A stretch of 64,000 bases of DNA. Source: Paramacrobiotus metropolitanus. Its lineage: Eukaryota; Tardigrada; Eutardigrada; Parachela; Macrobiotidae. The notes beneath the pieces are model-generated. The model made no database searches and was not told the origin of the DNA. It was given only the letters and a program-made list of their open reading frames with translations. Positions 7,601-61,651 of this stretch are shown piece by piece; the stretch's first letter is position 1; each line of letters starts with the position of its first letter. The stretch is taken from positions 62,001-126,000 of the forward strand of contig NW_026570262.1 in assembly GCF_019649055.1 (NCBI RefSeq). The letters run 5' to 3'. Made by a program: the position numbers and the translations under genes.

Positions 7601-10600
7601 TGTTGATCATCGAAAGAAGTTGACGGATGATGTAAAGTTGCTTACTGTTATGCGGACGCGAGACGCAAAGTTGATGCAGGACGCGTTCGAGCATGTTAAC
7701 AGTGAAAGCGGAAAGTTGCAACTGGAAAAGCAGAAGTTCCAGTTAGAGAAGGCGAAGGCGCAGAAAAGTTTTCAAGAAGGCACAGCTGCCTTGAATAAAA
7801 AGTATGCGAGTTTTTTGGCTGAGCAAACAGCATTTAATGTTGCTGTTGATAAGTGGAAAGTTGATCGGAATAATAGACGCCATGCAGTCGATGATGACGT
7901 CACTTTTGTTCCGGATGTTGAAACAGGTCGACGCAGCGTAGTAGTACAGGATATGGCTGAACCTGTACGAAAGCTGTACAGTGCTGTTCATAAGCCCGTC
8001 TTTGTGGTTAAAGATAACCAGAAGCTGGAAGAATTTCTGGATTTGCGTGAGCGTGCTCATAACATGCAGGAATGCTTGGGTGAGTCGCGTAGTCCCTCAC
8101 CAACGATTTCTGAAGTTAGCACAATTGCTTTGGCCAAGATGGAAGCCAAGGTTGCTGAACTTGATCGTCGTTTAAAGGAACAGGAGGCCAAGGGCGGTAG
8201 TACTGTTTCCGCACCATTTGATATGGATAAGTTTACTGATGCAATGAAAGGCGCATTCAGGACTGACACAATGTATCCTGAGAAGTTTGACGGGAAGACA
8301 GATACGAATAAGGTTGAGCAGTTTATCCAGAGTGTGGATAACTGTAAAAACCACAACAGTTGTTTTAGGCGCCATACTGCACCCCCGAAGCCTATCATGG
8401 CCGAACCCCCAGATCAGGTGATTAAAGCTTACATGATGAAGAAGTCGATGGGAAAGAATCCCGAAACTAACTGTTTGGGATCGTTCTTGATGCGAAGACC
8501 GGAGGTTAATTCTTTCACTGTGCAGGTTAAACATGCACAAGTTGTCGGAAAGGAAGAAACTTTCAGTGGGGGCGGAGCCGCCCAGTTACAGTTCAGCTCG
8601 ATACGCCGTCCGACGGGGCACTCGCTTCGCAGTGGGGGTGCTCAGGCTCGTGTGGGTTGGCGTCGGAAGCAAAGTGGCAGTGCTTATGTGAAGCGCTTGA
8701 AGTATCTGATCGAGAATCCCGAGGCGGAGATGAGTCGAGATGAAAGAGAGAACATGGAAGGATTTCATGTTTATCATGGAATTGTGTACCGTAGCAAGGG
8801 CGGTAGGTACGGTAGACACCGAGTAGTCGTACCGGAAGCTAGCCGTCAAGACTTGTTACGAGACTGCTATGAAAGTTTTCATGCTGGTAATTTGCATGTT
8901 TACTGGTCAGTCCGTAAGTATGTTTTACGGAGTTATTACTGGCCTGGGATGAATGCTGAATTATGGAGGATGGAAACGGAATGCGAGCATTGTGTTGCTT
9001 ATGACTGAAGTTCTGACTGCTACGTTGTGAGTCCTCTGTTTTATTGCCAGTGGTGTACTGACAGTGTAACTTGCTTCTACTCATAACCGCAGGATTTATC
9101 AGCAAAAAGGGGATGCTGATTGTTGAAATATCAGGAAGTTACAGAAACTGGTTGTGTGGGAAAAATAAGTACTTATCAATCGAGTACTGTGTTATGTGCC
9201 GTATCCGCCGGTGTGGTAGTTACGTGTTCGAAGCGCTGTGCTGCGGTGCAGTGTTTGATTTCTGTAAAAATGATTTTAAAAGTCATTTTGATTTTGCAGT
9301 TGGAGTAGTAATTACGATTACTGTATGATTTTGATAACTGGATGTTTTATAATCCAGTTAGGATTCGAATCGTTCATCCGGAAATTAATCTTGAATGATA
9401 CTGGTTATGTTTTGTTAGATCATTGTGAAGAACCATGCTATCGTATCGGTTCTTGTAATCTGGTTGTGATTGACTGTGTCTGATTGTTTGACTGCAAGTG
9501 CAAACTTGCAGTGGGGGTAATTGCCAGTTACTAGTGGAAATTAAATATCCACTTTTTGGTGCGCCGAAGATGCTGATAGATGGACGGTATTTATCCGTTC
9601 TGATCTGTGTTTTTTGATTTGCTGCGGCCAGTGTTATCAGAATGGTTGACATTTCTGGTGTGCTTGGCCTGTTCGATTCTGGATCCTCGAGCTCTTCGGA
9701 GGGAGAGGATAGATGAAAGTCTCACCTGGATACGAAAATTGGATGGATGACGATAACGGACGCGCTTGGAACCAGGAACCTCGGAGGACGTGGACGGAAC
9801 ACCAACTGGACCTGGACCTCCATTCGAGCCCCCGTTACACCCCGGATTTGACACGCGAATGATGAAAAAGATTTCCCAGGATCACGGTACTTTTCCTGGA
9901 TTTTTGGCGTTTCTTGATTTTGGTTCTGTTTGTTTGTTTGCTTTGATTAACGCGGACGTTAATTCTGTAGCAGTGGGGGTAACGCGCTATGCGTAGTTTG
10001 CGCGTATTACGTACGTGTTATGACGTACGTGTTGTCTGTTCCGTTACGTACGACGTGCTGTTCTTATCTAACGCATTTGGATCGCTAATTGCATCCACGA
10101 TTCTGGTTTAACTAATCAGTCTGAAGTTTCTAACTTCTACTAAATCTGTGAGCTTGTTTCTAGCTGAAAGGTCGTGTGACTCTAGGTTAGAAGGAAGTTC
10201 ATATCTCGTTCTGTTCTGTTCTGTTTGTTCGTTCGTTCAGTTTGGTGATTAAACATTTGGGAAGTTCCTGAGTGTTTGGGTTTCGGTAACTTTCGTTAGG
10301 CACAGCAATCCGCTCGTACCTAGCGGAAGTAGGCAGTAGTACCACTTACGGAGTCCAGAGCATATTCCCACTCTACCGACTGAGTAGGTTTGGTCATCTA
10401 GTGCGGTTGTCGCGGTGCGACTTCCGCATAGCATGTCAGTATGGTCTATGGATTGTCTTGCCGGTATGTTAATTTGGGAAAACATGAAACATTAGACGTA
10501 ACCTTCAGCGATGTGTTTTGAGTGCAAATCTGTTTCATGAATAACGACACACAACTATAATAAACAGAAAAACGAATAAAATAAAAATCTACTGTACATC

Positions 10601-31115: not shown

Positions 31116-33139
31116 ATGAATGTCCCTGATCAGAACCCTCTGACGGCCGGTGTCCACATCAAAGAGGAAGACCTCACCCCCCTGGATCTCGGGATAAATG
31201 GTAATGAGATGTTATTATGGGAGGCCTATCAGGAGTACAAAGTGCTGGGCTACCTGTCCGAGCTGCACACGGGTGCCCAGTGTACCTCCGGGGACCTCCC
31301 CCCAGACACTGAGACTCATGCGGCGTCTTGTACAGCGTTAGACTGGTTAACTCTGCCCGACGACGATCCCTTCATCGTGGAGTACGCGCGCACCACCAGC
31401 TGGCCCGACTCCCTGGGCCTGGGCAGTCCCGAGGCGTTGGCCGATGCCGTCGGGCAGGATGACGTCGGCACCACCGACCTCCCGCCCTACCTCATGGCCA
31501 CCGGGCACCTGGGCTCCCCCCGGCCGGAGGTGGAGTACGGCCAACGGAGTCTGACCAAAGTCAAACAGGAGACGGAGATCCCCACCTTCCCGGCCTTCCC
31601 CGATGGGTTTGACGAGCGGAAATCCGTCACCCCTGACGAGAAGATCACTCGTAATCGCACAGCGGAGAAAGGTTTGATACTTGGCACTGGGAGCGAGCGT
31701 GTTGCGCATTCTCGTGGTAGGGCAATGAGTAAACGCGGGGTGAATGTTTTAGCAGGGTCCAAGAAGGCGGCGGTGAAGAGTAAGTCCTTCAGTCCTAGTC
31801 GGCCGCTGGTGGAACGCCATAAACGCCATTCGGATGATGACGGGGATAGTGTGAGTAGTAATCTGACGGACTACACGGATGGGACGGACGGGTCGGGGAC
31901 GGATGGGAGTAATCACGCTGCGGATGGGCGGGTGTCCACGGATGGACGACGGAAGATGTCGCGACGCGATGTGGAGGGGATGCTGGCCGCCGCGGAGCAC
32001 GGGGGTGCTGGGGATGCGGGATTGCCGTCCTTGCCGAAGATTCCTACTGTGCCCTTTGCCGAGAATGCCAAGCGACAGCGCCGTGACGTGTAAGTACACA
32101 CTACACAGTTACTGTCGATAACATATTTGAAAACACTGTTTTATATGTAGTTTTTATGATTTTTAATCTTTTTGGAATAACTTTTAGTCATTCTGTGTTT
32201 TTATTATGTAATAATTTGCTGCGATTTTGGTCATGTTGACTGTTTCAGTTTCCCTGAACTACAGGAAAATTTTTCTTGACTTTTAAATAATTCGACAAAA
32301 CTTTGTAGGAAATTCCCCAATCAAAGCTACGATTTTCACTTATATTGCACAATAATTGATTGCGGTTATCTTTGCCATCTGTTTCTGTTTTGCAAAATTT
32401 GGGAATATTTTCTGTTTACTTTTATTGAGTGTTTTTATTAATGTGCTTATTGAAAGTGTTATCGCGAGCAGTGTTTTGTCAACAAGTACTCTTGTTAGCA
32501 CTTAGCAGCAGTAAATTTTTCAGTTACAGCGAAATGAATACGCTGTTGAGTATAGACGATTCCGTAGCATAGTGGCTGTGCATACTCATAGCGATATCGT
32601 TTAATTCTACAGCAGTGTGTGCAAGCCAATTTAATATAACCTATGCGCAAATATCCAGTTAAATTAATTCTAATTTTTTTTTGCTGCATTGCAGTTCCAT
32701 GTCCGCACCGGCTGTGGCCGCCCGCGAACTCCGTCTGAAAAAGAAACAACGCGAGGAGCATCTGATCACCGAGTGCATGGACCTGAAAGCGGAAGCGGAG
32801 ACGATGGAACGCGACATGCGGGAGGCGCGCGCCCAACTGGACCGCCTGCGGGAGGACGCGGCCTACCTGCGCAGTCTGGTCAAGTCGCAGCAGTCCGTGG
32901 TGGATCTGCTGCAGTACCTGCAGAACGCCCCCTTCTTCAACAAGGACGGCCACACGGAGCCGGGCCTGCGTCTGGACGGGCGCAGTATCCTGCGGCAGAT
33001 CAGCGGCAGCGCCCAGGACGAGAAGACGGCCAAGAAGGAGCAGGCCAAGGAGATCGGCGGCATCTGTCTGCACATTAACGGCTCCAGTATCACCCTGCAT
33101 TTATGCTCGCACTGCAGCAGTGAGGCTGGCTCGAAGTAG
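31116..33139 (+). CDS. CREBZF/Zhangfei-like bZIP transcription regulator
   Basis: Two exons, 31116-32089 and 32695-33139, splice in phase 2 to 472 residues. The start is the ATG at 31116 (MNVPDQN); the frame is open upstream from a GTG. The N-terminus is acidic and proline-rich (e.g. VHIKEEDLTPLDLG), suggesting an activation domain. The intron falls inside the basic region: AKRQRRDV / SMSAPAVAARELRLKKKQ. The leucine zipper follows, with alternating LITECMDL, AQLDRLREDAAYLRSL and VVDLLQYL. The C-terminus GGICLHINGSSITLHLCSHC resembles the conserved Cys-containing tail of CREBZF, and the AARxLRLKKK basic region matches that family. CREBZF members bind partners (HCF-1, ATF-type factors) more than DNA. 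This copy is longer than the vertebrate protein. It is the parent of three truncated copies farther right. Confidence 0.8.
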
Positions 33140-34388
33140 TCCGCTGTGATGATGATTGGAGCGCATTGCTGTGTGGATATTTTGTGTATTTATGTAGGTA
33201 GTTTTTTTCTCTCGAGGGATGATGCTTTTGATATTAACACTTTTGATTACTGACGCAGGTTGGTAGTATTTTGCGTTAGAGCGTCTTGGGAGATTCCCAA
33301 GATGGATTTCGTGTTTTGTTGGGTGTACTTTCTTCTCGCTTGTACATACGCGGAAAATCTGTCCAGAATGATCATATTGAATTATGTCGCTGTTAATGTC
33401 ATTTCAGGTGCTCTGTAATAGTTCTTTGCCGCAGATTTATTTTGTTCGTGTATTCCATTCCGCTAGTGGATTCTGTTGAGGAGCGAATCATTTTCTCCGA
33501 TCGCAGTTAATAATAAAATTAGGACGAAAAATTTGTATATCGATTATCGCGTAATCGGAGCGGATTTTGTTCTGCTGCGAAGTGTGATAGAAACAAAGGT
33601 ATATTTTATTTTCTTTTCATCTTGTGCAACAAAACGGCAGAAACTAGAAAACGCTGATGTAGATCGTAGTGCAATCACCGGCACCAGTTCGCTTCAACAA
33701 GTCTGACAACAGGTACCGAATTCCACGTACAGATTAGACAGTTAAGTCTTTAACGAACAACGTTTGCATAAAATTACCTTTAACGTTCTTCGTTTCTGCA
33801 CCACATAATTACGTCGCAAAATCAAGTCACACTGCAGGCTACAGTTACAAGAATCGCTGAAAATAAATCTACTGAAAGCATCTCGCAGAATCATAACGAC
33901 AACGAAACTACTTACTTACCATATACACCTGAGTCCTGACACCCTGTAGGTCATGGTAAAAATGAAATTGCTGCAGTTTTTGTTAATGTACTGTACTAAT
34001 TTTTGTTAATTTAATTAATTTCTTATCAACATCTTGCGTTCGTACTAACAGTAACATCACTTCTATCCATGTTGCGCTAACAAGTAGGAAACACAATCTA
34101 AACCAAACAACTGGCTAACAGCTATTTACAAAGAAGCTTCTCTCAAGTTGTTTTATACACAGGTTAGAGATACCAAATCGACGGAACAAGACAACTATTT
34201 TTCAGATCCAGGAATGAAATGTTAAAAAACGAGATTATTTCTGTCCCGAGTAACTATGAAACTGGATTGAGTGCACTAATAAGAGAAGTAGGGATACCTT
34301 CCAATCACGCACAGCTGTCAGCAACCACGCGCAACAGCAGTTACCCTCTTTACACACACTCCGAACGGTGACGTTCCACCTCCTTCCA
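33140..34388. other. Intergenic; 3' UTR of the bZIP gene, then nothing recognised
   Basis: The first 400 nt are also present after the pseudogene at 39468-39919, marking them as part of the duplicated bZIP unit. An AATAAAAT signal occurs near 33511. No further gene is seen. Confidence 0.5.
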
Positions 34389-36229
34389 TTATTTCTTCTC
34401 GCCAACGAAACGACCTTGATCATCGCGTGGCATGGTATCCGCGAAGAGCCTACAACCGGAACACACAATACTCACAACAAGATCCAATGGACGCAAAATC
34501 AGATAACCGCTTCGATCTTCTTTACTGCATAAACAATAAACTGTGCCAGAAAGTTTTAAACTTAATTTCAAGTTTCAAAGAATCTTATCTGGTTCCCGAA
34601 TACTACTCACTTGGCAGCTGCGCTCAGCTCTTCACGCGCGGTCTCATGAGTCTTCACGAACTGGCCATCTGCGTCACGCGGATGCTCCTGTCAAAATCAA
34701 CTTGTCATAAATTAAAAATCGCAATGAAATTATCATCAGTCAAATGGAAATCTAATTATCACTACTTAGTATATGATTTTATAGACCGGCTTGCATACGA
34801 CACACGATAACACCCCAGTTAAGGAGTTAAGTATAAATAGAATAAAAATTCTGCGCAGTACCGCGGGATCAAATTGATTATCCTTCACGAACTGGCCACT
34901 TTTGCCACGCGGATGATCCTGCCGAAATAAAACCAAACCATTATTAATTATGATATTTTATTAAAGCAATAATAGGAATTAGGAAGTATTAATAATAAAG
35001 CTACAAGAACGGCTTCCGTGTACATACTCGTACTTACTTTAAGTATGCAATAGTACGTATAATTACTTATATTATAAGTTATAACACCCAATTGACCGCA
35101 GCAAAATAAGTACTGTACACAGTAAACAGTGTACACTGTAGTGACTGTACTGAGTGTATATAGATAGTACTGTATACTGTATAGTAGAAAGGATATAAAA
35201 GTTAAAACCATTTACCCGGGCCGTTTCCCTGTACTGCTGCCGTCACCCGCCCGGAGTGTGACTTTTACAACATACAACAGTACAGTACATTAAACCTCCA
35301 GCCGGGAGACAGCAGCAGCACACCGAGTAGAATGGTTTTCCCCACCATGGTACATGTACATTAAAAAAATAAAAATAATATTACTGCCCACTGCGCAGTA
35401 CCTCAGGGTTAAAATCGTTTTTCTCCACGAACTGGCCCTCTTCGTCGCGCGGATGATCCTGTCAAAATCGAAACCAAATTATCAGCATCATGTACTCTAA
35501 AAATCGTTTAACTTTTCAAACGCAGTTAGCCGAATTGTCGTTAGTAGTCTGTCGTGCCTTAATTAACACAAAATCCGATGTCCTACTGTAATACGGCGCT
35601 CTTTAATACAACGAAAATCAGCAAAATCGGCGTCGAATACGACAATCAACAGCGGACGCAGATACACCGGGCACAATTTTATAAGAAAGGTTACGATTGA
35701 TACGTTTTTAACTTCTAAACATCAGACCTACCTCCTAAGCACTACTGCTCGATCGTACTTATATTCGAAACTGAAAACTAAATCTAAGCCTTTGATTTTC
35801 CATTTCTAGCAGTTTAAAAAATTTTAGATTTATACATTTATCCATAAAAGCACATTCGTATCAAGTCGTTTCAGGTAAGTTTTAAAATGCAAAAAAATAA
35901 GCCGTAAGAACACTGTAAAATCAGTGTACTTACTAGTTACTACTTACACAAACTTTACTAATCGTGGATTGTAAATTCCACTACCAAGTAGACATTGACT
36001 ACGTACACAATGCAACCGCGGTTTGTGAGCTTTCTGTGAGTTGCAGTGTGATTGAATTTGAATGTAACTAATTTTGTTTGGTACGATGATGATCATCATA
36101 TGAACATCCCAGTAGACAATAAATAAAACATAACACAGTACTGCGTAGTACAGCCTGTACCTCAGGATTAAACTGGTTAAAGAGCCGAGCCCCATCATTT
36201 CCGGTGGTTTGGCTTTCTTTCTTCGACAT
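34389..36229 (-). CDS. Small HPRD..GQFV tandem-repeat protein, unrecognised
   Basis: Five short exons, all with canonical splice sites, join in frame to 106 residues: 36161-36229, 35402-35458, 34862-34918, 34611-34687 and 34389-34449. Exon 1 begins MSKKESQTTGNDG and ends FNQFNPE. Exons 2 and 3 are each 57 nt, phase 0 on both sides, and encode DHPRDEEGQFVEKNDFNPE and DHPRGKSGQFVKDNQFDPA. Exon 4 encodes EHPRDADGQFVK plus a helical stretch ending SAAAK. Exon 5 has a fourth, shorter copy, MPRDDQGRFVGEKK, then the stop. The protein is hydrophilic, charged and without a signal peptide or membrane helix, so it is probably soluble and partly disordered. The four-fold repetition and intact phases across five exons make chance unlikely. 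I recognise no family. Confidence 0.75.
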
Positions 36230-37243
36230 GTTGAAACTTCGGATGTTCCGACCTAAATTGTCACAAACCCACGACTGAAAATATCGGAATTAAAATCAAA
36301 GGTGATACGGAATATTCCACACGTTTATTTCAGAATGCTGAAATGGAACTGCGCAGACACTTTATTTGCCGATACCGTTGCGCGGGGGGGATTTTATAGT
36401 AGATGCCGGGGAAATACATACGGTAGAAGTGACCGTATACCGTATAGGCATATGCGTATGCAAAGTACTTTTGGACGGATTTTCCCTTTAATATGTTTAG
36501 TTTATGTCCATACGGAAATCTTACGCTGCTGTGCCTTCCAATAGTCGCTGCGCGCAATGCGGACTGGTCGTGTTCGAGTGGCCAACCACAATTGCGTATG
36601 AGACTTAGAAATTTTTGGCGAGCAGAGTTTTGGCTTCATTTTATTTATTTTTTCTTATAATTTCTTATGCTTTTATGTTTTTGTTATGCTTATCCTTACG
36701 TTTTTTGTTACAGTATTCTTTTTCCTACCTTCTTGAGTTTTTCAGGTTCAGTCGTTTCTACATAATGCATTATGTAGAAATAAGTATGCGATAGTATACA
36801 TCCGGTAGTACATGGTGTATTACATCGCTTGCACTTACGTTAATATGCTAGTAAAATTGTAATTGTAATAGGAATAGCGGTCTATGGCAAACCGCCTCGT
36901 AGACCTCCATGCTGAACGAAATTCTCTTAAATCGCAAATCAAACGTTTCTTTCAAAACTTTTTGCTTATAGACTTTTCGTTTTCAAATTTAACTTTTTTT
37001 TCTGCATTTTTTAAGCTGTGGTACGCACGGATTGTATGAATTTGAACAAATCGAAAAAACACCAAACCTGCAGGGGTTGCCCAATGCGCAGCTGTTTTGG
37101 TAATTCCACAAACTGCTTTTCAAAAGCGCCTCCTGGCATACAGTAAGTGGCGTACGTGGAACAGTGCGGAATTTCTATGTGGAATTTCATTTAGTTATTT
37201 TTTGTGTTTGAAACAGCTGATGTTTCCGTTTTAATTTATCCAG
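36230..37243. other. Intergenic, no supported gene
   Basis: This is the upstream flank of the repeat-protein gene. It is AT-rich with chance frames. A possible plus-strand exon-like stretch around 37015-37099 (frame reading YEFEQIEKTPNLQ) ends at a GTAATT donor but does not join in frame to the next candidate. Confidence 0.3.
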
Positions 37244-38895: not shown

Positions 38896-39467
38896 AAGTG
38901 GGATAAAGTGCATTTTGGGATAAAGTGCATTAATGCACTTTAATGTCACGGTGTGGCTTGACTGAATATTATTATCGTAACTCTATAATTTACTGTATAC
39001 TTAAGCACTGCATATTTTATTTCTGTATTTCGTTAATATCCTACATTATACAGACTAAACTCAGTTTCTGCGCTCGGAACCACGCGTGAATATATTAATG
39101 TCGCGAAACTTGCGTGCACCACGAAAGTTAGATAATTGATCGCGTTTTTTTCTACCTTCTGTTTTTGATTTTGAAAATTCGAGCAGATTTTCAGTTACTT
39201 CTGTAGATTGCTTTTAAATTTTAATAGTCTGGTTATTGAAGCCGTAATTGCGATTTGCGAGCACTGTTTTGTCGGTAAGCACTCTTTTTAGCAGCAGCAG
39301 CAGTAAATTTCAGTCATAGAGGTATGAATACCCTGTTCGGGAAAGAGATTCTGTAGGGTAGAGGCTGTACACGGCGATATTGTTTGAGGTATAATGTGGA
39401 AACCATCTTAATAAAATTGCAGACTTATGCAGGGACAAAATAAAATGTGATTTTTTTTGCATTCCAG

Positions 39468-39919
39468 ATCCATGTCCGCACCGGCAGTGGCCGCCCGCGA
39501 GCTCCGTCTAAAATAGAAACAACGCGAAGAGCAGCTTATCACCGAGTGCATGGACGGTGGCCCTGAAAACGGAAGCGGAGATGATGGGGCGTGACATGCG
39601 GGAGGCGCGCGCCCAGCTGGACCGCCTGCGGGAGGACACGGCGTACCTGCGCAGTCTGATCAAGTCGCAGCAGTCCGTGGTGGATCTGCTGCAGTACCTG
39701 CAGAACGCCCCCTTCTTCAACAAGGACGGCCGCCCGGAGCCGGGCCTGCATCTGGACGAGCGCAGTATCCTGCGGCAGATCAGCGGCAGCGCCCAGGACG
39801 AGAAGACGGCCAAGAAGGAGCAGGCCAAGGAGATCGGCGGGATTTGTCTGTACATCAACGGCTCCAGTATCACCATGCATTTATGCTCGCACTGCAGCAG
39901 TGAGGCCGGCTCGAAGTAG
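39468..39919 (+). pseudogene. bZIP pseudogene copy 2 (second exon only)
   Basis: This is homologous to exon 2 of the CREBZF-like gene at 32695-33139, with its own acceptor (TTCCAG) and the same stop. The basic region is broken by an in-frame TAG at 39514-39516 (LRLK-stop). Seven extra bases, GGTGGCC at 39556-39562, shift the frame. The zipper and Cys tail downstream remain open and very similar to the parent. Intron-like and 3' flanking sequences match the parent too, so it is a DNA-level duplicate, not a processed copy. No first exon was found. Confidence 0.9.
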
Positions 39920-40249
39920 TCAAGTGTGATGTGGAGCGTGTGTGGATAATTGTGTATTTACGTAGGTAGTTTTTTCTGGAGGGATGAACATTTACTTTTG
40001 AATTTTGATTACTGACGCCGGTTGGTAGTGTTTTTGGGGATTTCAAGATGGATTTCTTGTTGGCTGGGTTTATTTAATCTCGCTTGTACATTTGCGTGGA
40101 AAACTCTGTTCAGAGTATTCATATTGAATAGGTTTGTGTCGCCGCTGTTGTTTCCGATTAGTTTAGATCATTTCTTCGCCACAATTTTATTTTGTTCGTG
40201 TGTTCATTCCGCTAGTTCGTTCTGCTGGGGAACAGACCATTTTCTTTGA

Positions 40250-43700: not shown

Positions 43701-43933
43701 TTATCAGTTGGAGCAAGAGTCAAAAAACGTGCCGGCTTATCTGTGTACGTAAACCTGTGGTGTTGAGCGTTGACTTATGATCGAACATGCCGGTCTGGAT
43801 TATCTTTTCGTCGAGCTGGAGTTTGTACTTGATGTTGAGTAACTACAGAGTACGAGCAGCATTTGCTGACCTTTTCACCTGTACTTACATAAATTCACAA
43901 ACTCATATCCTCACGCCGATGCGCTCCACATCA

Positions 43934-45115
43934 TCACAGCGGATTATTTCGAGCCGGCTTCACCATGCTGCAGTGCGAGCATAAATGCAGGGTGATACTG
44001 GAGCCGTTGATGTACAGACAAATCCCGCCGATCTCCTTGGCCTGCTCCTTCTTGGCCGTCTTCTCGTCCTGGGCGCTGCCGCTGATCTGCCGCAGGATAC
44101 TGCGCCCGTCCAGACGCAGGCCCTGCTCGGCGCGGCCGTCCTTGTTGAAGAAGGGGGCGTTCTGCAGGTACTGCAGCAAATCCACCACGGACTGCTGCGA
44201 CTTGACCAGACTGCGCAGGTAGGCCGCGTCCTCCCGCAGGCGGTCCAGTTGGGCGCGCGCCTCCCGCATGTCGCGCTCCATCGTCTCCGCTTCCGCTTTC
44301 AGGTCCATGCACTCGGTGATGAGAGTCTCTTCGCGCTGCTTCTTCTTCCGACGGAGCTCGCGGGCGGCCACCGCCGATGTGGACACGGATCTGCAATGCA
44401 GAAAAAAATTACGATTAATTTACTGTGCATTTATGCATATTCCGCTTGCACATGCAACAGCAAATGGCATTACCATCGTAACATGCAGCCACAACTCTAC
44501 AGTTTCCCTCTTAAAATGCGTGCGTGTTCATGTGGCTGTTGCTGTAACGGTCCCGAAAACGAAGTATTTACAAAACAACTTCCGAAATTGTGATTACGAT
44601 CTTTTCAGCCATGAAAAAACCGCGGTAAATTATTGGACAATAAGTGAAAACGCGGAACTGATTGGGAAGTTTTCTACACATGCAGCTTCGTTGAATTACT
44701 CGAAAATTAACACGTTTTCTCCAGGTTTTGGAAGCTTAAGCAGCAGATATAAGAAAAACCCCGGCAAATTATTACGCAATTAGCATAAAAATTATTCACC
44801 AAAATTACTCACTATATTAAAAATTATTTACTAAATTGCTCACTAAAAGTTAGGAAATCTTGAAAAATTTTGCACAAAAGTTTCGAATATTTTCAAGACA
44901 GTAAGCAGCATTTAAGGACTTACACGTCGCGGCGCTGTCGCTTGGCATCTTCGAGATCGGCAAACGGCACGGTAGGAATCTTCGGCAAGGACGGCAATCC
45001 GGCATCCTCTCCACATCGCGTCGCGTCATCTTCCGTCGTACAATATCCGTCGGCCCGACTCGGCACCCGGTTATCCGCGGCATGATCACTCTCATCCGTC
45101 CCCGACCGACTAGCC
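43934..45115 (-). pseudogene. 5'-truncated bZIP copy 3
   Basis: Exon 2 (43934-44390) is open over the basic region, zipper and CLYINGSSITLHLCSHC tail, but the last residues are replaced after CSHCS. The 3' end of exon 1 survives at 44924 to about 45115 with a good GTAAGT donor, and joins in frame through AKRQRRDV. Upstream of that it has an internal deletion relative to the parent (about 34 nt), and similarity ends at a CCCCGACCG hairpin near 45100. The parent's acidic N-terminus and any in-frame ATG are missing. If expressed from another start, it would be a bZIP-only protein. Confidence 0.8.
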
Positions 45116-45123: not shown

Positions 45124-45922
45124 TCAAAGAAAAGCCGGTCGGACAGCGTGGAAAATTATTATTGTGGCTTTCTTTGCTATTAATGCACCAATTCAAGTAG
45201 GTGCACTTTATATTAGTAATTTGCTCGTGTTAAATGTTAATTCGAGCGAATCTTTCAGTTGAATTGCTGACGTTTATGCAGGAGTTGCCCGCGAGTTGCT
45301 TTAAGTGTCGCAACACACATTTTTGAACCTTGATTTTATAATTTCTTTATATTTTCTGTTCACTTAATTAAAAAGAATATCTTCGTAAATCTGTTAGCAG
45401 CACCGACTGATTTAAGATTTGCCTCGCAGCGTGAAGGAGGCAGGAATTAAATGCATATACAATAAGGACGCCGACGTGTAGAATTGATTTTCATATTTTT
45501 ATATAACAAGCTCCAGATAATATCGTACTGCTTCGTTTTATTAGTCGTACATCAGCGCATCAGTGCGCGGTACAAATCGGCTTCGTAGTGAAGCTACCAA
45601 CGGGACGTTACAAACCGTTAATGCAGAAAACGTGGGTGTGTCGTCAAAATCGTCAAGCATTCTCGAAGCAACGCAAGGAGGTGAAGCCGACCAGGAAACA
45701 ATAACAATGGAAAAGATATGCCGGTAATCGTACAAAAAAACAACACAAAAAAAAACAGTGTAAATGTCAACAAATACAGTTTCGAAAAGTAACTGCAAAA
45801 AAGACAGCTCATCTGGCGCAAAAAAGACAGGGCAATCGTGGTAAGAAAGTAAAAAAATAAAGAGTAAAACAATTACCACACGCCAATTCAAAAATGCCCT
45901 TTGTCCGCCATGCCGGTCTACT

Positions 45923-46728
45923 TCAGTTAACGCCGTGGAGCTGCTTGTAGTACTGCATATCGTTGTATGCCATGCCGAGGTGACCCAAGGAGGCCAGCGT
46001 GAAGTCGAATCGGCGGGCTTGCACGGCGGCCATGTTCTGCAGCAACTTCAGAATCTGGTTGTTCTGAGCAATCACCTGGTTGTTCTGGACGATGACCTGG
46101 CCCATCTGGGCCTCCACCTGGCCCATGCGGGTCTCCAGGGCCCCCATCCGGTTCTCCACCAGGCCCATCCGGTTCCCGAAGACGCCCATGCGGGTCTCGA
46201 ACGCCGCCAGCGCCTCTCCCAACGCCTGGAAGTGCTGCTCGTTGCCCTTCAGGGTGCCGACTGCCTCCTCCAGCACCTTCTCAATGGCCTCCATGCGTTC
46301 AGACGCCCACTTGTAGTGCTCCGTGTTGCGCTCCTTGGCCTCCGCGAACTCCTTGTAGAAACAGTAACGGGTGATGCCCGCCTCCTGGTGCAGGACCTCC
46401 AGCTGAGCCCGTTGCTGCTTCAGCGCCCAGCGAACGCGATCCATTTCCGCCGCGGCCTCCTCCGGCTGCATCCCGTTCAGCGCCGTGAGCTTTCCTCGAG
46501 AGCCGTCCAGGGCCTTGGTGGCCTTCGGCAGCTCGACTTCCAGCTGGAAGAAGTGCTGGATCAGCGTCGGCTCGTCCACCACCTGGCAAATTGAGCGAAT
46601 TCTGGTTAACTCTGCGTATTTAACCCCATTTGAAAAGTAAAGGCAACGTGACACCGGCGCCTTACCATTTCTTCTGTTTCCGGCTGCACTGCCTCCGTCT
46701 GACAGGCGTTGTCAATGCGACCGGCCAT
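45923..46728 (-). CDS. Unrecognised coiled-coil protein, copy 3 (intact)
   Basis: Two exons, 46666-46728 and 45923-46582 (donor ATG/GTAAGG, acceptor GCCAG/GTGG, phase 0), give 240 residues. Exon 1 encodes MAGRIDNACQTEAVQPETEEM. Exon 2 begins VVDEPTLIQHFFQLEVELPKA, is rich in Glu, Gln, Ala and Leu, and contains six consecutive heptads of the form (V/L)xxRMGx (FGNRMGL, VENRMGA, LETRMGQ, VEAQMGQ, VIVQNNQ, VIAQNNQ). That predicts a parallel coiled coil. The C-terminus is LGHLGMAYNDMQYYKQLHGVN. There is no signal peptide or membrane helix. An AATAAA signal lies about 380 nt downstream (near 45540). No known family is recognised. The near-identity to 61652-62464 and the intact frame in both suggest function or recent gene conversion. 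Confidence 0.75.
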
Positions 46729-48314
46729 CTTTGATCCTCACCTAAGCGTATAAACAAGCGGTAGCGTCATTGAAGATCTTTCTCTACGTACAAAAACAGA
46801 TACCTAACTAAGCAAAACGTATGGGTATGTTTCTTGCGTTATGCATTGCCGCAAGATGATAACAAAATTACGAAGTGCAGAAGCCATAAGTCGGAAGCCA
46901 TCAGTTATCACACCACTATACCACAGGTCCACAGCATATTATAGCCACGAAATAATCTCAGAGATGGAAGAAAAAAGAAACTGAAACTTCCTCGCTTGTC
47001 GTAATATGTGCTCGTTACATCGTTTAAATGACGGTTTTTGAATTACATGTACAAGTGAAAATGTTTGAATTACATGTACAGCTGGTCTCGTATTTGAAAT
47101 TTAAGAACGTTGACTCCAGTGAATAAACTGGCCGCTTTCACATTAATAAATTGGTCCCTTTTCATTACACCGATCACTGCATCTCCAGACTTACAATACG
47201 AATATACAAAGTACCATAGTATTAAACCAGTGATCACGCTGCTTACAACGCCCTCAAATTTTGATTACCAACAAAATACGACTGCCATCAAATACGCTCA
47301 TATCAAAGAAGCAAATTAAACAAATTTCGATGGATAAAAAAATTTAAAAACTAGCGGCTCATAAAACAGATATTATCGCTAAAACTCTGTTGACCATGGG
47401 TACAGTACCGACAGTATGATGCGCTTCACACTCACACTTGATTTCGATCGATCAGAGGAAGGAGCCAATTCAGACCACGTAAGAGCCGATTAAACCTACA
47501 AAAACGGACAGCTGCTTGATCTAAAACAGCGAATAAAGGCATCTAGGTACATGTATTTTGCAATCATTTCCGAATGGCTGAACTATCGCCTACTCGCCTA
47601 TCGTAGATTCTAAATCAATGGTACAGCAACGGCGTAAGTTCGTTCTCAAGATTGACGCGCACTGTGAACACTATAGTGCTGCATCCCTGCGTCAATATCT
47701 GACTACTGATTTTATTGTATCATTTCAGCTGTTAACGGGGAAAAACTCAGAAAACGTTAAATCAAAAGCAAAGTCTAAACATTACGCGCTTCCCTTGGGC
47801 TCACCCTGCCATCGCTACAGTACAGTACTGGCTAAATTGATGAAGTGATGGCAAAATCAAGTATTATTGCGGACTGAAAACCTTTAATTATCGTAGTGTA
47901 GTTAGAAGGTGAAGGGAATCCGCTTGCACGATGACGTCAGAACAGCACGCGCTCCAAGTATCCTGAGGACCTTGAGGAGCCAACGGCGGACCACTGCAAA
48001 ACGCAAGAAAATGATTAGCTGACAATTAATTTTGGTATTGAAGCAACTTGTACCTTATTCGAACTTATTCCGCGCTTGTAAAAAATTTTTCCCGATATTC
48101 GACGCGCGTGATTAGTTGTTAAAAATTAGCGATGCAAGGTGAGACGTTAACGAGAACCCAAAGTGAACGAGCGCGACTGAAATGCGAGGTCGGAATAAAA
48201 TTAGGAGGACACATTAGCTTCCCTGTACTTTCTCAAATTACGCGGATGTCTTAGAACAGAGTTAGCGCTAATCCTAACAGAATTAGCAGCCAGTACAGGT
48301 TTTCAGGCACATGC
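46729..48314. other. Upstream flank of the coiled-coil gene; duplicated, no gene
   Basis: Matches 62465-63990 with many substitutions and small gaps. Short frames are not conserved between the two copies, so it is probably promoter plus spacer. Confidence 0.5.
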
Positions 48315-51207: not shown

Positions 51208-51640
51208 TGTAACAGTGGCCTATCTGGCTACTGTTCTAGTGGGGTGGCGATCAGCCTTTACCACGATTAAACGGCTGTTGGTGTGAAAGGTGGCACGGCC
51301 GGCAACGATGCTGGCCGAGGACGCTCTTACAGATGTAACGCAATTACACAGGTGGCTCCGATTGGGATGACACAGGTTCATCCCAAGCGGTCAAACACAA
51401 CAACGTAACTCAAGGCATGTTTAATGACAAGGCGTTCAAGAAACGGAGCAAGGTTGTTAGCAAGGGTTCCAGCAAGAGGAACAATCAAGTAGATGCAAGC
51501 TGTAGCAAGCTGAGCACAAGACTGAATTCTAGAAATTCATGAGAAAGGAAACTAGCCGGTAACGGGGACACAAATTCATAACGCGATGGAATGAATCATG
51601 ACTGGGCGGTCTTATCGTTCGTACAAATACTATCGCTACA
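51208..51640 (-). repeat. 3' LTR of the minus-strand element
   Basis: 433 bp, matching 53930-54362 apart from C/T, C/T and G/A differences. Confidence 0.9.
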
Positions 51641-53929: not shown

Positions 53930-54362
53930 TGTAACAGTGGCCTATCTGGCTACTGTTCTAGTGGGGTGGCGATCAGCCTTTACCACGATTAAACGGCTGT
54001 TGGTGTGAAAGGTGGCACGGCCGGCAACGATGCTGGCCGAGGACGCTCTTACAGATGTAACGCAATTACACAGGTGGCTCCGACTGGGATGACACAGGTT
54101 CATCCCAAGCGGTCAAACACAACAACGTAACTCAAGGCATGTTTAATGACAAGGCGTTCAAGAAACGGAGCAAGGTTGTTAGCAAGGGTTTCAGCAAGAG
54201 GAACAATCAAGTAGATGCAAGCTGTAGCAAGCTGAGCACAAGACTGAATTCTAGAAATTCATGAGAAAGGAAACTAGCCGGTAACGGGGACACAAATTCA
54301 TAACGCGATGGAATGAATCATAACTGGGCGGTCTTATCGTTCGTACAAATACTATCGCTACA
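53930..54362 (-). repeat. 5' LTR of the minus-strand element
   Basis: 433 bp, next to the TGGCGCT primer-binding site (minus strand, about 53922-53929). Confidence 0.9.
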
Positions 54363-54830: not shown

Positions 54831-54948
54831 GTTTCCTTAGCGAAACTGGACATGTGGCGAAATTCTGTAAAATGCCGAATCAACGCACGGTTGTAAGAGA
54901 ACCCGAAATAGCCGGTTCAAAAAACTTGCAGGAATAAAAAGCGGTAAT

Positions 54949-56219
54949 ATGCGTATGCGTATTATGAATGTTAATCCGAAAAATTTTCAAAATATAAAAA
55001 TTAGATGTTGCAATATTAACAGTATTTTTTCAAAAAAAGAAGAAGTTAGGCAGTTTTGTTCTGAATCTGATGTTAGTGCGTTCACGGAAACGTGGGACCA
55101 AGAAATTTATTCCGACAGTTTTTTTGCCGACCTTCGCAAATTTAACGTTTTTCGCCGATGGCGTAAATCGTCGGACAGCCACGGTGGAGTCGCTTTAATT
55201 TTATCGAAAAAATTAAAAGGTTTTAGGCGCACAGATCTCGATAGAGATGATCTCGAGATTTTGTTCGTGGAATCGCCTGTTTTGGACTGCTTATTCGGTG
55301 TTATCTACATAAGACCATCAAAAAAAGCCTTGCTAATACCTCTACTTGTTGAACATTTACAAGAAAATCTGTCTGTCGAATTACGTAACAAGCTTATTTT
55401 GATGGGTGATTTTAATCTACCGGATATCTGTTGGACTAGTATGAAAGCCCTACCACTGCTTCGCAATTGTTGCTTGATTCTTTAAAAGAATTTAACTTTC
55501 GCCAGTTAATACATTTCCCCACTAGAGAAAACAACATCCTTGATCTTTGTTTAATTTCTACGAACCGTTTTGTCACTGACGTTGAATGTGTGTCACCTCC
55601 ATCCGCGTCAAATGACCATTATGCCTTTCAGTTCCGTCTTTATTGTAAACGTCGCAAAGCAGAATTTCAGTCGAGCGGTAAGCACTGGAATATTCTTCCT
55701 GATAAAATCGAACCTTTTCGAAATTCATTAATGGCGACAGACTGGCAATTTATTTTAACAAGTAGTGACCCATCCGTTATGGCGATGCAGTTTGAAAATG
55801 AGATTTTAAACGTAGCCCAACATTTTTTTGCCTACGGCGAACGTACAGCAAAAAAATTGAAAAAGTATCCCTTAAGTATTCGCAAAGCGATAAATCGTAG
55901 AAATAGACTTTTCCGCAAAATGCTGCAAGAAAACAGTATAGCGAATAAAGACAGCTTGAAAGAATCGTGGAAGGCCGAATCTCGGAAAGTCGACGCTGTT
56001 CTCAAAGCGCATCGCAGAAACGCGATTTTAGACGTCGCAACAGCAACCCGAAATAATCCGAAAAAGTTTTGGCAGTTTATCAAACAAAGTGTTGATAAGA
56101 AGACACTGCCGCCCATCAAAACGCAAGAAGGTACCACCCTTTTTCTGATCACGACAAGGCAAATAGATTTAACGAAACTTTTCTCGAGTCTCAAAACAGC
56201 TGCCCTTCCCATTGCGTAG
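54949..56219 (+). pseudogene. LINE ORF2, endonuclease part (frameshifted)
   Basis: Frame 1 (54949-55485) has the APE signatures NINSIF, FTETWD, GGVALIL and MGDFNLPDICW. The frame shifts near 55450, and frame 2 (55467-56219) continues with SNDHYAFQF, the catalytic SDH-like motif, and a Lys/Arg-rich linker including RNNPKKFWQFIK. A stop at 56217-56219 ends this part before the polymerase. Confidence 0.88.
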
Positions 56220-56221
56220 TT

Positions 56222-57880
56222 GTGTCTCCCAAACCTGAAGACAGGGAAATTGCGTTTAAAATAAGCGATAGCGACGTTCAAACCGCTCTAAACGAAATGA
56301 AATTTTCTGCTTCGTCCGGTCAGTTCAAAGTCTCAAATTCTCTGTTAAAAGCTTGCGGAATCTCAATTGTTGCACCGCTTGTAACTTTATTTAATATTTG
56401 CGTCAAATTCAGTACATTCCCGTCGCACTGGAAGACGTCATACGTGACTCCTCTTCCAAAAACGTCTGTAGATCAAACATTAATTACCAATTACCGCCCT
56501 ATTGCAATTCTGCATCCAGTTTCGAAAATCTTTGAAAAGTGCATTGCCAACTATTTACGATGTTTTTTGGAAAGCAATTGCTTGTTAAGTGACAGCCAGT
56601 TCGGATTCCGTGCTAAGCGTAACACGGAACTGCAGTGTTTGGTTTTCTCGAAATTTGTTAAAGACTTTATTGAAAACGGAGTTGAAGTTGATGCGGTGAT
56701 GTTAGACTGCTCCAAAGCCTTTGATCGTGTAGACCACCAGTCCTTGTTGACAACACTGGGCTTGCTTGGTGTTGACCCCGACGTTATTAGTTTGCTGGAT
56801 GACTACTTAACTGGTAGAGAACAGATTGTGGTCGTGAATGGCGTATTTTCAAAAAGCGGGGTTACAACCAGCGGAGTACCACAAGGTTCAGTATTAGGTC
56901 CAATATTGTTTATCTGCGAAATTAATGGGATAGTGTTTGTTCTGCTAAATGGTAGCAGGATTTTTATTTTCGCAGACGATGTGTTCTTATGCAGGCCAAT
57001 AAGAACGAGCGACGACTGCACGAAATTTCAAGAAGATATCGATGCCGTATTTAAATCAGCGGTTGAAAAACGATTGACCTTTAACCCGAAAAAATCAGTG
57101 CACATGCGCTTTTCCAATAAACGAAGTTTAAGTGACGTAAATAAATATTTTTTGAACAACGTCGAGATTGAAAGTCGCCCTGTCGTTAAATATTTGGGGT
57201 TAGTGGTCGATCGAAAACTGCGGTGGGGTGAGCATACGAGTAATTTGTGTATCAAGATTAGAAACGTATAGGCTACATCTTATCGCTGTTTAACCATTAT
57301 GACTCCGCGGCACTTATTTGTTTGTATAAAGCGTTAATTTTTCCACTTTTGATTATTGCAGTCCGTGGTAAAACCATTTCTCAAAACCCATAGAGACGAT
57401 TTAGATAAATGTGCTTTAAAGTTCCTGAAAAGATTGCGAATGGGCAATGCGCGTACAGATTACAGTGGCAGGCTTCGCGAGATAAATTGGGATTGTGTTG
57501 AACTGCGTCGCATTAAAACGTCTTTGTGTGTTGCATATAAACTCGTATTCGGCATGATACCTTTTGGCAGCCATTTTTTTATTTGTTATGAGTCAGTTAC
57601 TGCCGTCGATACTGTTGCAGGTAACACTCGGAATGCCGATCGGATGTCGCGCCACCCATTCCCGATTCAAGCTGCCAGAACAAGTTTTTGTGGAACGGAA
57701 GTGCCAGCCAGCGAAAATTCTTTCTCATGGAGGACTGCTAAACTTTGGAACGACCTCAATTTAGATCCGTCATCGTACTGCTCACTGCAATCATTCCAAA
57801 GAGCATTGGAAGACGTCTCTTGGAAGGAGATCGCATCTGCTAACGACCATCTGCCGTCGAATAACCTTGACTTTTGTTAA
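56222..57880 (+). pseudogene. LINE ORF2, reverse transcriptase part (interrupted)
   Basis: The frame 56222-57271 carries the polymerase blocks NYRPIAILHPVSKIFEK, SQFGFRAKRNTE, VMLDCSKAFDRVDH, SGVPQGSVLGP and the catalytic IFADD. A TAG at 57269-57271 interrupts it. The last part is in another frame (57356-57880) with RLREINWDCVELRR and the C-terminal SFSWRTAKLWNDL phrase common in CR1/Jockey elements. Confidence 0.9.
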
Positions 57881-59170: not shown

Positions 59171-59528
59171 CAGCAAAATTGAAGGTAATGCAAAATATGA
59201 AATCATATATATATCTTATAACCTCCATCGTTAAAATGATTACAAAAGTATGCGCATCTGACATGATTGTTTTATGATAACAATTATTATGCTCTTTTGA
59301 TTGAGCATTAACTGCAGCAATTTGTGTAAGTAAAGTAAGTAAACCCTGGAGGTGAGTGTCGATCGACTTCTAAGCGAACATGCCGGTCTGGATGGTCTTC
59401 TCGTCGGGCTGGAGTTTGTACTTGATGTTGAGTAACTACGAGCAGTACTTGCTGACCTTTTCACCTGTACTTACATAAATTCACAAACGCGTACCTCACA
59501 CCAATGCGCTCCACATCATCACAGCGGA

Positions 59529-60725
59529 TTATTTCGAGCCGGCCTCGCTGCTGCAGTGCGAGCATAAATGCAGGGTGATACTAGAGCCGTTGATGTGCAG
59601 ACAGATACCGCCGATCTCCTTGGCCTGCTCCTTCTTGGCCGTCTTCTCGTCCTGGGCGCTGCCGCTGATCTGCCGCAGGATACTGCGCCCGTCCAGACGC
59701 AGGCCCTGCTCGGCGCGGCCGTCCTTGTTGAAGAAGGGGGCGTTCTGCAGGTACTGCAGCAGATCCACCACGGACTGCTGCGACTTGACCAGACTGCGCA
59801 GGTAGGCCGCGTCCTCCCGCAGGCGGTCCAGTTGGGCGCGCGCCTCCCGCATGTCGCGCTCCATCGTCTCCGCTCCCGCTTTCAGCTAGGTCCATGCATG
59901 ATACATTCGGTCAGCGGGTGCTCTTCGCGCTGCTTCTTCCTCAGACGGAGTTTGCGAGCGGCCACTGCCGGTGTGGACATGGATCTGCAATGCAGAAGAA
60001 AAATCAGAATTAATTTAACTGGGTATTTGCGTATAAGCTTTATGAAGTCGGCTTGCACACATTGCTGTAGATTAAGCGATATCGCTATGCACAGTCACTG
60101 TTCTACGGAATCTCTCTCTACACCCTACAGCGTATTCATCTCGCTATAACTGAAAAATTTACTGCTGCTAAAAATAGTAAATACTTGTTGACAGAACACT
60201 GCTCGCAATTACAGTTGCAATAACCAGATTATTAAAAGCATTCAATGAAAGTAATAGAAAACTTTCCCGAATTTCCCAAAATCAGAATTAGACTGGGGAA
60301 TTTCCTACAAGGTTTCGTCGAATGTCGAATTACTGAAAAATCAAGAAAAATTTAAGAAAACGTTGTTGTTGTTTAGGAAAACTGTAGGAGTAAATATGGA
60401 TAAATCACACCAAATTGTTACACAATAAGTGTAAAAAAAATTAAAAAAGCTAAAAGTTATTCCATAAAGGTTAAAAATCAAGAAAACTACAAAATAATGT
60501 TTTCAATATTTTCGAGACAGTAATGGTGGACTTGCACGTCACGGCGCTGTCGCTTGGCATTCTCGGCAAACGGCACGGTAGGAATCTTCGGCAAGGGCGG
60601 CAATGCGGCATCACCGCAGGCGCAGGCATCCCCTCCACATCGCGTCGCGTCATCTTCCGCCGTCCATCCGTCGACACCCGGCCATCCGCGGCATGATCAC
60701 TCCCATCCGTCCCCGACAGCCCCAT
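59529..60725 (-). pseudogene. 5'-truncated bZIP copy 4
   Basis: Exon 2 retains the zipper and tail in frame (59529 to about 59864) but has two insertions in the basic/zipper junction: TATCATG near 59897 and AGCT near 59884. These destroy the frame. The exon 1 remnant (60536 to about 60725) is truncated at nearly the same point as copy 3 and has lost about 30 nt internally. Its donor is GCAAGT instead of GTAAGT. The zipper codons are almost base-for-base those of copies 1 and 3, unlike the diverged flanks. Confidence 0.85.
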
Positions 60726-61651
60726 AGAGTAATCTTTGATTGTGCATAGAGTAGTCGGGTAGCGTGGCAAATCATTATTGTGGCTTTCTTTGCTATTAAT
60801 ACACAACTTCAAGAAAGTACCTTTTATTTTAGTAATTTTCTCGTGTTAAAGCGAACGAATCAGCTTTCAGTGAATTGCTGGCGCTTGTGCAGGCGATACC
60901 CGCGAGTTGATACTAAACAGTGTCGCATCACCATTTTCGGATCTTGATTTTACAATTATTAACATGTTTTCAAAAACTGATTGTTGTCAGATTTTTTAAT
61001 GGCTCGGGAAATCACAATACAAATTTTTAGTCGATTTATTGACTCATCCGTAATGTGTAAAATGGACAGGGTAAGTTAATTAGACTCGTTTCAATTAATT
61101 TACAGAATATTGCTCGCAGATCTGCTAGCAGGACTGACTGTTTTAGGATCTGCCTTGCAGCGTGAAGAAAGCAGGAAATAAATGAATGTGAAATAAATTC
61201 ACTGACGTGTAAAATGAATTTTTTATATTTTTATATAACAAGAATACCGTACTGCTTCATTTTATTAATTAGTCGTACATCAGCGCATCCGCGCGGTAGC
61301 AAAGCTTACCAACGGGAAGTTACTCGCACAAACAACTGAAACAAGTATTGCAGAAAACGTGGGCGTGCCGCATAATTGTCAACGTCCTCGAAGCAGCGCA
61401 GGAAGATGAAGCACCAAGCAAACTCAACAAAAAACAACGGAAAGGGATATGGCACTAATTGTTCAAAAAAGCAACGCCCAAACAGTACAAATGCCAACAA
61501 ATTTAATTTTGAAAAATCATAGCAACAAAAATGGCGCATTTGGCGCAAAAAAACAGGGCAAAGCGGGGTAAAAAAGTAAGAGAATAAAAAGAGTAAAACA
61601 ATTACCACACGCCAATTGAAAAATGCCCTTTGTCCGCCATGCCGGCCTACT
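60726..61651. other. Spacer and 3' flank of coiled-coil copy 4
   Basis: Matches 45116-45922. No gene. It contains the probable 3' UTR of the coiled-coil gene. Confidence 0.5.

What the first reader, a model, noticed from the sequence alone, without database searches (positions are those of the whole stretch)
34389..36229. Undescribed small protein built from one-exon repeat modules
Five splice-bounded exons on the minus strand yield a 106-residue protein with four copies of an (D/E)HPRDxxGQFV module. Two complete modules are single 57-nt phase-0 exons, and the first exon ends in the same FNPE phrase. Symmetric phases mean modules can be added or skipped without a frameshift, so isoforms with different repeat numbers are possible. 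I recognise no family. This is the best candidate in the window for an undescribed gene family.
Basis: seen in the sequence. Interest (0 to 1): 0.8.

Follow-up and report, generated by a model that had tools for sequence, protein, structure and literature searches.

The report
Tardigrade protein family with phage-like repeats
A water bear carries a small family of water-loving, probably unstructured proteins built from repeats of a short motif that otherwise turned up here as a linker in virus proteins of bacteria, which makes it a candidate new stress protein and a puzzle about where the motif came from.

Summary
Assembly size, contig C1 and a SAHS array identify a tardigrade, almost certainly Paramacrobiotus metropolitanus/TYO. 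Paralogues B and C share all four intron positions and phases (0,0,0,2) with gene A and have intact frames. Exons are far better conserved than introns; B-C pN/pS is about 0.15. D is a 62-residue single-exon frame with two modules, linked by the module alone. The true module crosses the intron: F-[N/D]-P-[E/A]-[D/E]-HPRDxxG[Q/H]FV. Pfam (A, B, D) and NCBIfam (A) gave no hit over a cut-off. In 6 of 10 scanned proteins it lies after a phage portal or Mu-F domain. There it is mostly single; tight tandem arrays were found only in the tardigrade, in codon-limited scans. All four proteins are extremely hydrophilic, Cys/Trp-free and predicted disordered from composition. Best reading: a hydrophilin-like disordered protein with repeated binding motifs. 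Protection during drying and descent from phage DNA are inference; no expression data were available.

The parts
36161..36229 (-). exon 1: start codon to FNPE, phase 0 end (gene A)
   Evidence: same position and phase in paralogues B (L003 3747-3884) and C (L002 5945-5811)
35402..35458 (-). exon 2: 57 nt, phase 0-0, module DHPRDEEGQFV followed by FNPE
34862..34918 (-). exon 3: 57 nt, phase 0-0, module DHPRGKSGQFV followed by FDPA
34611..34687 (-). exon 4: 77 nt, phase 0-2, module EHPRDADGQFV plus HETAREELSAAAK tail conserved in B and C
34389..34449 (-). exon 5: 61 nt with stop, divergent module TMPRDDQGRFV; the most conserved exon (87-89% A to B/C, 98% B to C)
36393..36398 (-). TATA box (TATAAA at -169) in a block alignable with B (-180) and C (-177)
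34010..34015 (-). possible polyadenylation signal (ATTAAA), 373 nt after the stop
   Evidence: consensus match only
35391..35401 (-). GTACTGCGCAG directly after exon 2, repeated at 34851-34861 directly after exon 3, and with one mismatch at 36141-36151, nine bases into intron 1; candidate relic of exon duplication
   Evidence: 7 matches with up to 1 mismatch in the window, 3 of them these; shuffles mean 0.70, largest 5

Best explanation
The locus is one member (A) of a family of at least four genes in a Paramacrobiotus tardigrade. They encode very hydrophilic, predicted disordered proteins without Cys or Trp and without an evident hydrophobic N-terminal signal (by eye). Each is a string of short modules F[ND]P[EA][DE]-HPRDxxG[QH]FV joined by polar spacers, short in A and Gly/Ser/His-rich in B and C. 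I propose that the modules are repeated, partner-binding linear motifs on a flexible, water-binding chain: a hydrophilin-like protein that shields or tethers other cell components, most plausibly when the animal dries. Shown: the gene family A-C, purifying selection, exon layout, composition, module conservation, and the likeness of the module to a box in viral proteins. Inferred: disorder (from composition only), D as a true relative rather than a look-alike, binding of a partner, a role in drying.
For: Family and selection. Composition: GRAVY -1.46 (A), -2.08 (B), -2.06 (C), -2.25 (D); Gly 7.5, 14.9, 15.7, 8.1%; 37-47% charged residues, net charge -0.04 to -0.11 per residue; no Cys or Trp; all four on the disordered side of the Uversky boundary. 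Aligned promoter blocks with a TATA box in A, B and C. A tardigrade with a SAHS array; assembly size and contig C1 fit Paramacrobiotus sp. TYO. Core module residues are kept in A, B, C and D while exon lengths of E1-E4 differ two- to threefold between A and B/C.
Against: No expression, proteomic or desiccation data could be reached. Hydrophilin criteria are loose. The tardigrade protectants I recall (CAHS, SAHS) are not short-motif repeat proteins. The conserved HPRDxxGxF core is more specific than a pure hydration role needs, which favours binding unrelated to drying. D has no TATAAA in 800 bp upstream and no coding introns, and full-length searches link it to A-C only weakly: E 0.038 with A as query, 0.053 with B, 0.66 with D.
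Confidence: 0.45

Rival explanations
1. Origin by capture: the module is a domesticated phage or bacterial linker box. A piece of a prokaryotic or phage gene entered the tardigrade genome, gained introns and was multiplied into an exon array. It still works as a flexible hinge or docking peptide. (Origin is a separate axis from function; this can be true together with the best explanation.)
For: In a scan that fixed only HPRDxxGxF, position -5 is W or F in 78 of 117 and -3 is E or P in 82 of 117. A has F and P there in E2-E4 modules; D has Y or F, and E. PHROG 15528 (portal) hits gene A at E=3.2e-4 over profile positions 653-678; a Mu-F-type viral protein with the box matches the same profile from position 652. 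D carries the commonest viral residue at -3 (E), +4 (E) and +5 (H).
Against: The match is about 14 residues and no flanking domain is shared. B does not hit PHROG 15528 and D only at E=4.1. F followed by D/N at -5/-4 occurs in only 10 of the 117 viral copies; W is commoner than F. H at +7 (B, D) and V at +9 are not favoured in the viral box, and D has H or R at -4. Tight tandem arrays were not found in viral contigs or bacterial genomes (codon-limited). A5 and B5 do not fit at free positions. No donor gene was identified. A query of two phage-like boxes returned nothing in this genome, though the tool notes that such an empty answer shows nothing.
Confidence: 0.3
2. Origin by convergence: HPRDxxGxF is a favourable turn or linker sequence, or binds a widely conserved partner, and arose independently in phages and tardigrades.
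For: In viral proteins the box recurs, mostly singly, in frames with different domains (portal, Mu-F, ADP-ribosyltransferase, topoisomerase I), with Gly-rich sequence often following; the tardigrade modules of B and C are likewise separated by polar, Gly/Ser-rich spacers.
Against: Agreement extends to positions not used in the search (-5, -4, -3 in A): free-position p = 5e-5 for A2, 3.3e-4 for A4, 9e-4 for B2. Elsewhere in this genome PRDxxGxF occurs at chance level: 44 matches against 45 for the reversed pattern, 12 of the 44 in this family; 20 of the other 32 were read and none has H before PRD, 12 were not read.
Confidence: 0.55
3. Function as a nuclear or signalling scaffold: modules recruit several copies of one partner, unrelated to desiccation.
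For: Strong conservation of module cores and of the E4-E5 tail ETAREELSAAAK-xFA[DE]TMPRDDQGRFV.
Against: No localisation signal was tested; the composition is that of hydrophilins.
Confidence: 0.3
4. Not a gene: chance open stretches beside splice-like sites.
For: No transcript evidence available here.
Against: Three genes with identical intron positions and phases, 12 of 12 introns GT-AG, and purifying selection.
Confidence: 0.02

Closest known systems
Viral HPRD box (my name), seen after phage portal and Mu-F domains and in PHROG 15528
   Same: Same residues at the same spacing: aromatic at -5, E or P at -3, HPRD, G at +6, F at +8; often beside polar Gly-rich sequence
   Different: In 252 frames counted, 212 have one module-like match, 21 two and 2 three, those more than 100 residues apart, 17 none by the stricter list; no tight tandem arrays; -5 more often W; +9 mostly T/G/A/S/R, tardigrade V
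Hydrophilins / LEA-like stress proteins
   Same: Gly above 6%, strongly hydrophilic, predicted disordered, no Cys or Trp
   Different: No Pfam model hits A or B at E<=10; modules are specific 11-15-residue boxes, not LEA 11-mers (recalled)
Tardigrade SAHS (and CAHS/MAHS, recalled)
   Same: Small soluble proteins of a tardigrade; the genome holds a SAHS array
   Different: The SAHS search did not return loci A-D; the SAHS query matches fatty-acid-binding proteins in the PDB
Bacterial repeat hydrophilins (KGG/YciG, GsiB; recalled)
   Same: Short hydrophilic tandem repeats
   Different: Different motif (recalled); no Pfam or NCBIfam hit for A

Membership tests
Hydrophilin (physico-chemical class; criteria recalled) | Gly >6% and hydrophilicity index >1 | tested here: met
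   four of four proteins
Hydrophilin (physico-chemical class; criteria recalled) | induced by water loss, protective | not testable with these tools
   no expression or assay data
LEA proteins | match to a LEA Pfam family | tested here: not met
   A and B no family at E<=10; D only RPA43_OB at 0.14, under its cut-off; C not scanned
SAHS | sequence related to SAHS1 (5xn9) | tested here: not met
   23 matches in the genome, none at loci A-D
CAHS / MAHS | conserved CAHS or MAHS motifs | not tested
   no reference sequence used; unknown whether Pfam holds a model
Viral HPRD-box proteins | box residues at searched and free positions | tested here: met
   A2, A3, A4, B2, B3, D1, D2 fit at free positions (p 0.0042 or lower), B4 p 0.011, A5 and B5 do not (0.15, 0.11); C modules not scored
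Viral HPRD-box proteins | adjacent portal, Mu-F or carried enzyme domain | tested here: not met
   no such Pfam domain in A, B or D; the PHROG 15528 hit of A covers only the box
Viral HPRD-box proteins | common descent | tested here: inconclusive
   too short for a tree; no donor or intermediate found

The most novel reading that the evidence does not exclude
A phage capsid-to-cargo linker box was captured by an animal genome, given introns, multiplied into an array of one-module exons and spread into a gene family under purifying selection: a domesticated phage peptide reused as the repeat of a tardigrade disordered protein.
Probability: 0.25. Interest if true: 0.85.

Novelty: new variant of a known kind. 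Interest (0 to 1): 0.6.

Why it matters
Tardigrade desiccation tolerance is thought to rest largely on disordered proteins particular to that phylum (recalled), and each new family is a direct experimental lead. This one has a sharply defined repeat, four genes of different length in one genome, and a motif shared with phage head proteins. It offers a testable case of either motif transfer from phage to animal or strong convergence on a 14-residue box. The phage side matters too: a recurrent box near the border of head domains, for which I found no name, is itself worth study.

Tried and rejected
Pfam, NCBIfam and PADLOC scans of gene A and a PDB search with gene B gave nothing; Pfam on D gave one sub-threshold hit. 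tblastn of gene A against 72,556 plasmid records found none; against 50,697 phage records 9 weak hits, best E 0.6.

Tandem-array scans: viral 0, 0 and three stretches of one contig, genomes 1. In the viral contig the motif frames run opposite to LHREDGPA-type repeat genes and were judged an antisense artefact. The bacterial hit (Paenarthrobacter) lies in a frame overlapping a different, membrane-protein-like open frame and was judged chance. These scans fixed some codons and gap lengths, so other codon usage and wider spacing are under-sampled.

A profile of the viral box was first scored on whole proteins; because the core was the search key, I redid it on free positions only. One search returned 0 because my regular expression had one residue too many; one search is the corrected run. 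I considered folding a phage protein, but a relatives search returned only its own contig and single-sequence folding would be poor; the spliced tardigrade protein is not letter-for-letter in the DNA, so I did not send it to the structure tool. No structure prediction was run. A promoter paper (PMC11609603, passages seen) was looked at for motifs; I tested only heat-shock-element-like and TATA strings, and the three heat-shock-element-like strings found (two in A, one in C) are not evidence. A fatty-acid-binding-protein locus did not help to identify the organism.

Full report
WHAT WAS CHECKED. The exons lie on the minus strand within the stated span: E1 36229-36161, E2 35458-35402, E3 34918-34862, E4 34687-34611, E5 34449-34389. 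They give a 106-residue protein with one module in each of E2 to E5. E2 and E3 are 57-nt phase 0-0 exons; E4 is phase 0-2. The conserved unit begins at the F[ND]PE or FDPA that ends the preceding exon, so it straddles the introns. No repeat of the window over 300 bp overlaps the gene.

ORGANISM. G000 has 169,799,020 bases in 533 contigs and contig C1, which seems to be the longest, is 4,484,719 bases. Passages of PMC8277472 give Paramacrobiotus sp. TYO 170,483,395 bases in 684 scaffolds, longest 4,484,941, GC 43.46%; passages of PMC11191345 on P. metropolitanus give 4.48 M. A SAHS query, which itself matches PDB 5xn9, finds 23 places, 16 of them in an array on C3. The genome is a tardigrade, almost certainly this species.

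A FAMILY, NOT A SINGLE GENE. Searches with gene A, gene B and gene D find loci on C63 (B, L003), C20 (C, L002) and C13 (D, L001). B and C have five exons with the four introns at the same places and phases (0,0,0,2) as A; all 12 introns are GT-AG and the frames are intact. B-C exons are 90-98% identical against 53-66% for introns; dS 0.35, dN 0.04, pN/pS bootstrap 0.08-0.24. A-B and A-C pN/pS are 0.23-0.55 and 0.21-0.51. D is a 62-residue single-exon frame with two modules, ending FVAKK where A and B end FVGEKK and FVSEKK. D is tied to the others by the module only: E 0.038 with A, 0.053 with B, 0.66 with D as query. Four genes is a lower bound. A whole-genome pattern for PRDxxGxF gave 44 matches against 45 for the reversed pattern; 12 of the 44 are in this family. 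I read 20 of the other 32 and none has H before PRD; 12 were not read.

EXON EVOLUTION. In the 36-nt module core, A's E2, E3 and E4 agree with one another at 29-31 of 36 positions, while A's E4 agrees with B's E4 at 22 and with C's at 18. A's E5 agrees with E5 of B and C at 32 of 36. So either the modules of A were homogenised or the E4 modules of B and C diverged. GTACTGCGCAG follows E2 and E3 exactly and, with one change, lies nine bases into intron 1; similar strings follow E2 in B and C. The window holds 7 matches with up to one mismatch, 4 of them elsewhere or on the other strand, against a shuffle mean of 0.70. This fits exon duplication with flanks but does not prove it. Module number is the same in A, B and C.

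CLOSEST SEQUENCE OUTSIDE THE ANIMAL. A scan against PHROGs gave gene A a hit to a portal family (phrog_15528) at E=3.2e-4; B did not hit it and D did so only at E=4.1. The 125 copies lie in stop-free frames of 47 to 2026 residues. A second scan fixing only HPRDxxGxF gave 117 distinct copies with 12 upstream residues. Position -5 is W in 46 and F in 32; -3 is E in 66 and P in 16. F with D/N at -5/-4 together is found in 10 of 117, so the exact F[DN] start is one variant of the viral box, not its rule. A profile of 112 of these segments gives A 59, B 51, D 42 bits against 13 for the best of 9000 shuffles. In a six-frame search of 113 kb (window and nine G000 loci) its 12 best hits are all exons of this family; gene A's E3 came 14th at E 2.5, one outsider above it. 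Both tests are partly circular because the core was the search key. On free positions only, p is 5e-5 (A2), 3.3e-4 (A4), 9e-4 (B2, B3), 0.00125 (D2), 0.0025 (D1), 0.0041 (A3), 0.011 (B4), 0.11 (B5), 0.15 (A5). The last two show that the E5 module does not follow the viral pattern outside its core. Residues against the likeness in the same call: H at +7 in B and D, H or R at -4 in D, V at +9 throughout.

WHAT THE BOX DOES IN PHAGES. I scanned 10 of 21 listed frames against PHROGs and Pfam. In 4 of 10 the box lies roughly 33-78 residues after the end of a Pfam portal match (L020, L029, L034, L106). In L068 the portal match ends about 140 residues upstream. In L026 it follows the Mu-F domain by about 22 residues. 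In L115 it precedes an ADP-ribosyltransferase domain, and in L034 a topoisomerase I core follows it. L014 and L046 had no hit in either library and L040 only PHROG head-type matches far upstream. PHROG portal alignments run across the box in L020 and L068, so it can count as part of the portal protein's own tail. I read it as a border element between head-structural and carried domains; only 2 of 10 showed a recognised carried enzyme domain. Polymorphic toxins of the Mu-F type are described in PMC5576092, whose main text did not contain linker, motif or cleavage terms (find only). The name HPRD box is mine, and viral contigs are taken to be mainly phage.

SINGLE VERSUS TANDEM. Among frames with the HPRD core in the viral loci, 212 have one module-like match, 21 two, 2 three, and 17 none by the stricter side-chain list; the multiples lie more than 100 residues apart. 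Tandem scans with 9-20-residue gaps found no array judged genuine in viral contigs or GTDB genomes, with codon limits on each scan. The tight array appears particular to the tardigrade family within what was searched; no other eukaryote could be searched.

HOW IT PROBABLY WORKS. All four proteins are strongly hydrophilic (GRAVY -1.46 to -2.25), Gly 7.5-15.7%, 37-47% charged, without Cys or Trp, and fall in the disordered region of charge-hydropathy space. They meet the hydrophilin criteria (recalled). Conserved module cores with freely changing spacers suggest repeated docking motifs on a flexible chain. I commit to a hydrophilin-like, multivalent disordered protein, most plausibly used when the animal dries, at 0.45. 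The disorder rests on composition alone, and the partner and the role are inference.

ORIGIN. This is a separate question from function. Convergence (0.55) is somewhat more likely than capture from phage or bacterial DNA (0.3). The box is short and no donor was found; a query with two phage-like boxes found nothing in this genome, which the tool itself calls uninformative. Against convergence stand the agreement at positions outside the search key and the use of the two virus-preferred residues at -3: E in D, P in the E2-E4 modules of A and the E2-E3 modules of B.

PRIOR ART. Searches of the held library for six HPRD-type strings, six PRDxxG strings and HPRD with phage portal and motif returned no papers. 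Tardigrade searches were seen as listings with the starts of abstracts only, 20 of 60, 10 of 725, 15 of 39 and 12 of 199 papers; none of those listed named such a family. The published gene models may well contain these genes as unnamed predictions; I could not check.

Noticed in passing
window 32656-33200, 39444-39938, 43882-44425, 59468-60287: Related copies (79-91% identity) of a unit, on both strands around the gene; two of them hold a charged coiled frame that looks bZIP-like by eye, with no Pfam hit at E<=0.001 for the two tested.
   Followed up: partly
window 45359-46789 and 61090-62525: A 1.4-kb unit duplicated at 86% identity with a 245-262-residue open frame on the minus strand, coiled-coil-like by eye; no Pfam hit at E<=0.001.
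   Followed up: partly
window 5906-6364 and 9980-10438: Direct 460-bp repeats, 99.3% identical, flanking an open frame with an integrase zinc-binding domain just over its cut-off: probably a young LTR-type element.
   Followed up: partly
window 51208-51640 and 53930-54362: Direct 433-bp repeats, 99.3% identical, 2.7 kb apart; possibly LTRs of another recent element.
   Followed up: no
window 54871-57271: Endonuclease and reverse transcriptase frames of what looks like a non-LTR retrotransposon.
   Followed up: partly
L008-L127 and L148-L252 (viral contigs): A recurrent box [WF]x[EP]xxHPRDxxG[KRQ]F, often followed by Gly-rich sequence, near phage portal or Mu-F domains; I found no name for it in the papers searched.
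   Followed up: partly
L256-L258: A 192-kb viral contig with LHREDGPA...PDGTKxWYRNG repeat frames (two read in L258), whose antisense mimics the HPRD pattern.
   Followed up: partly
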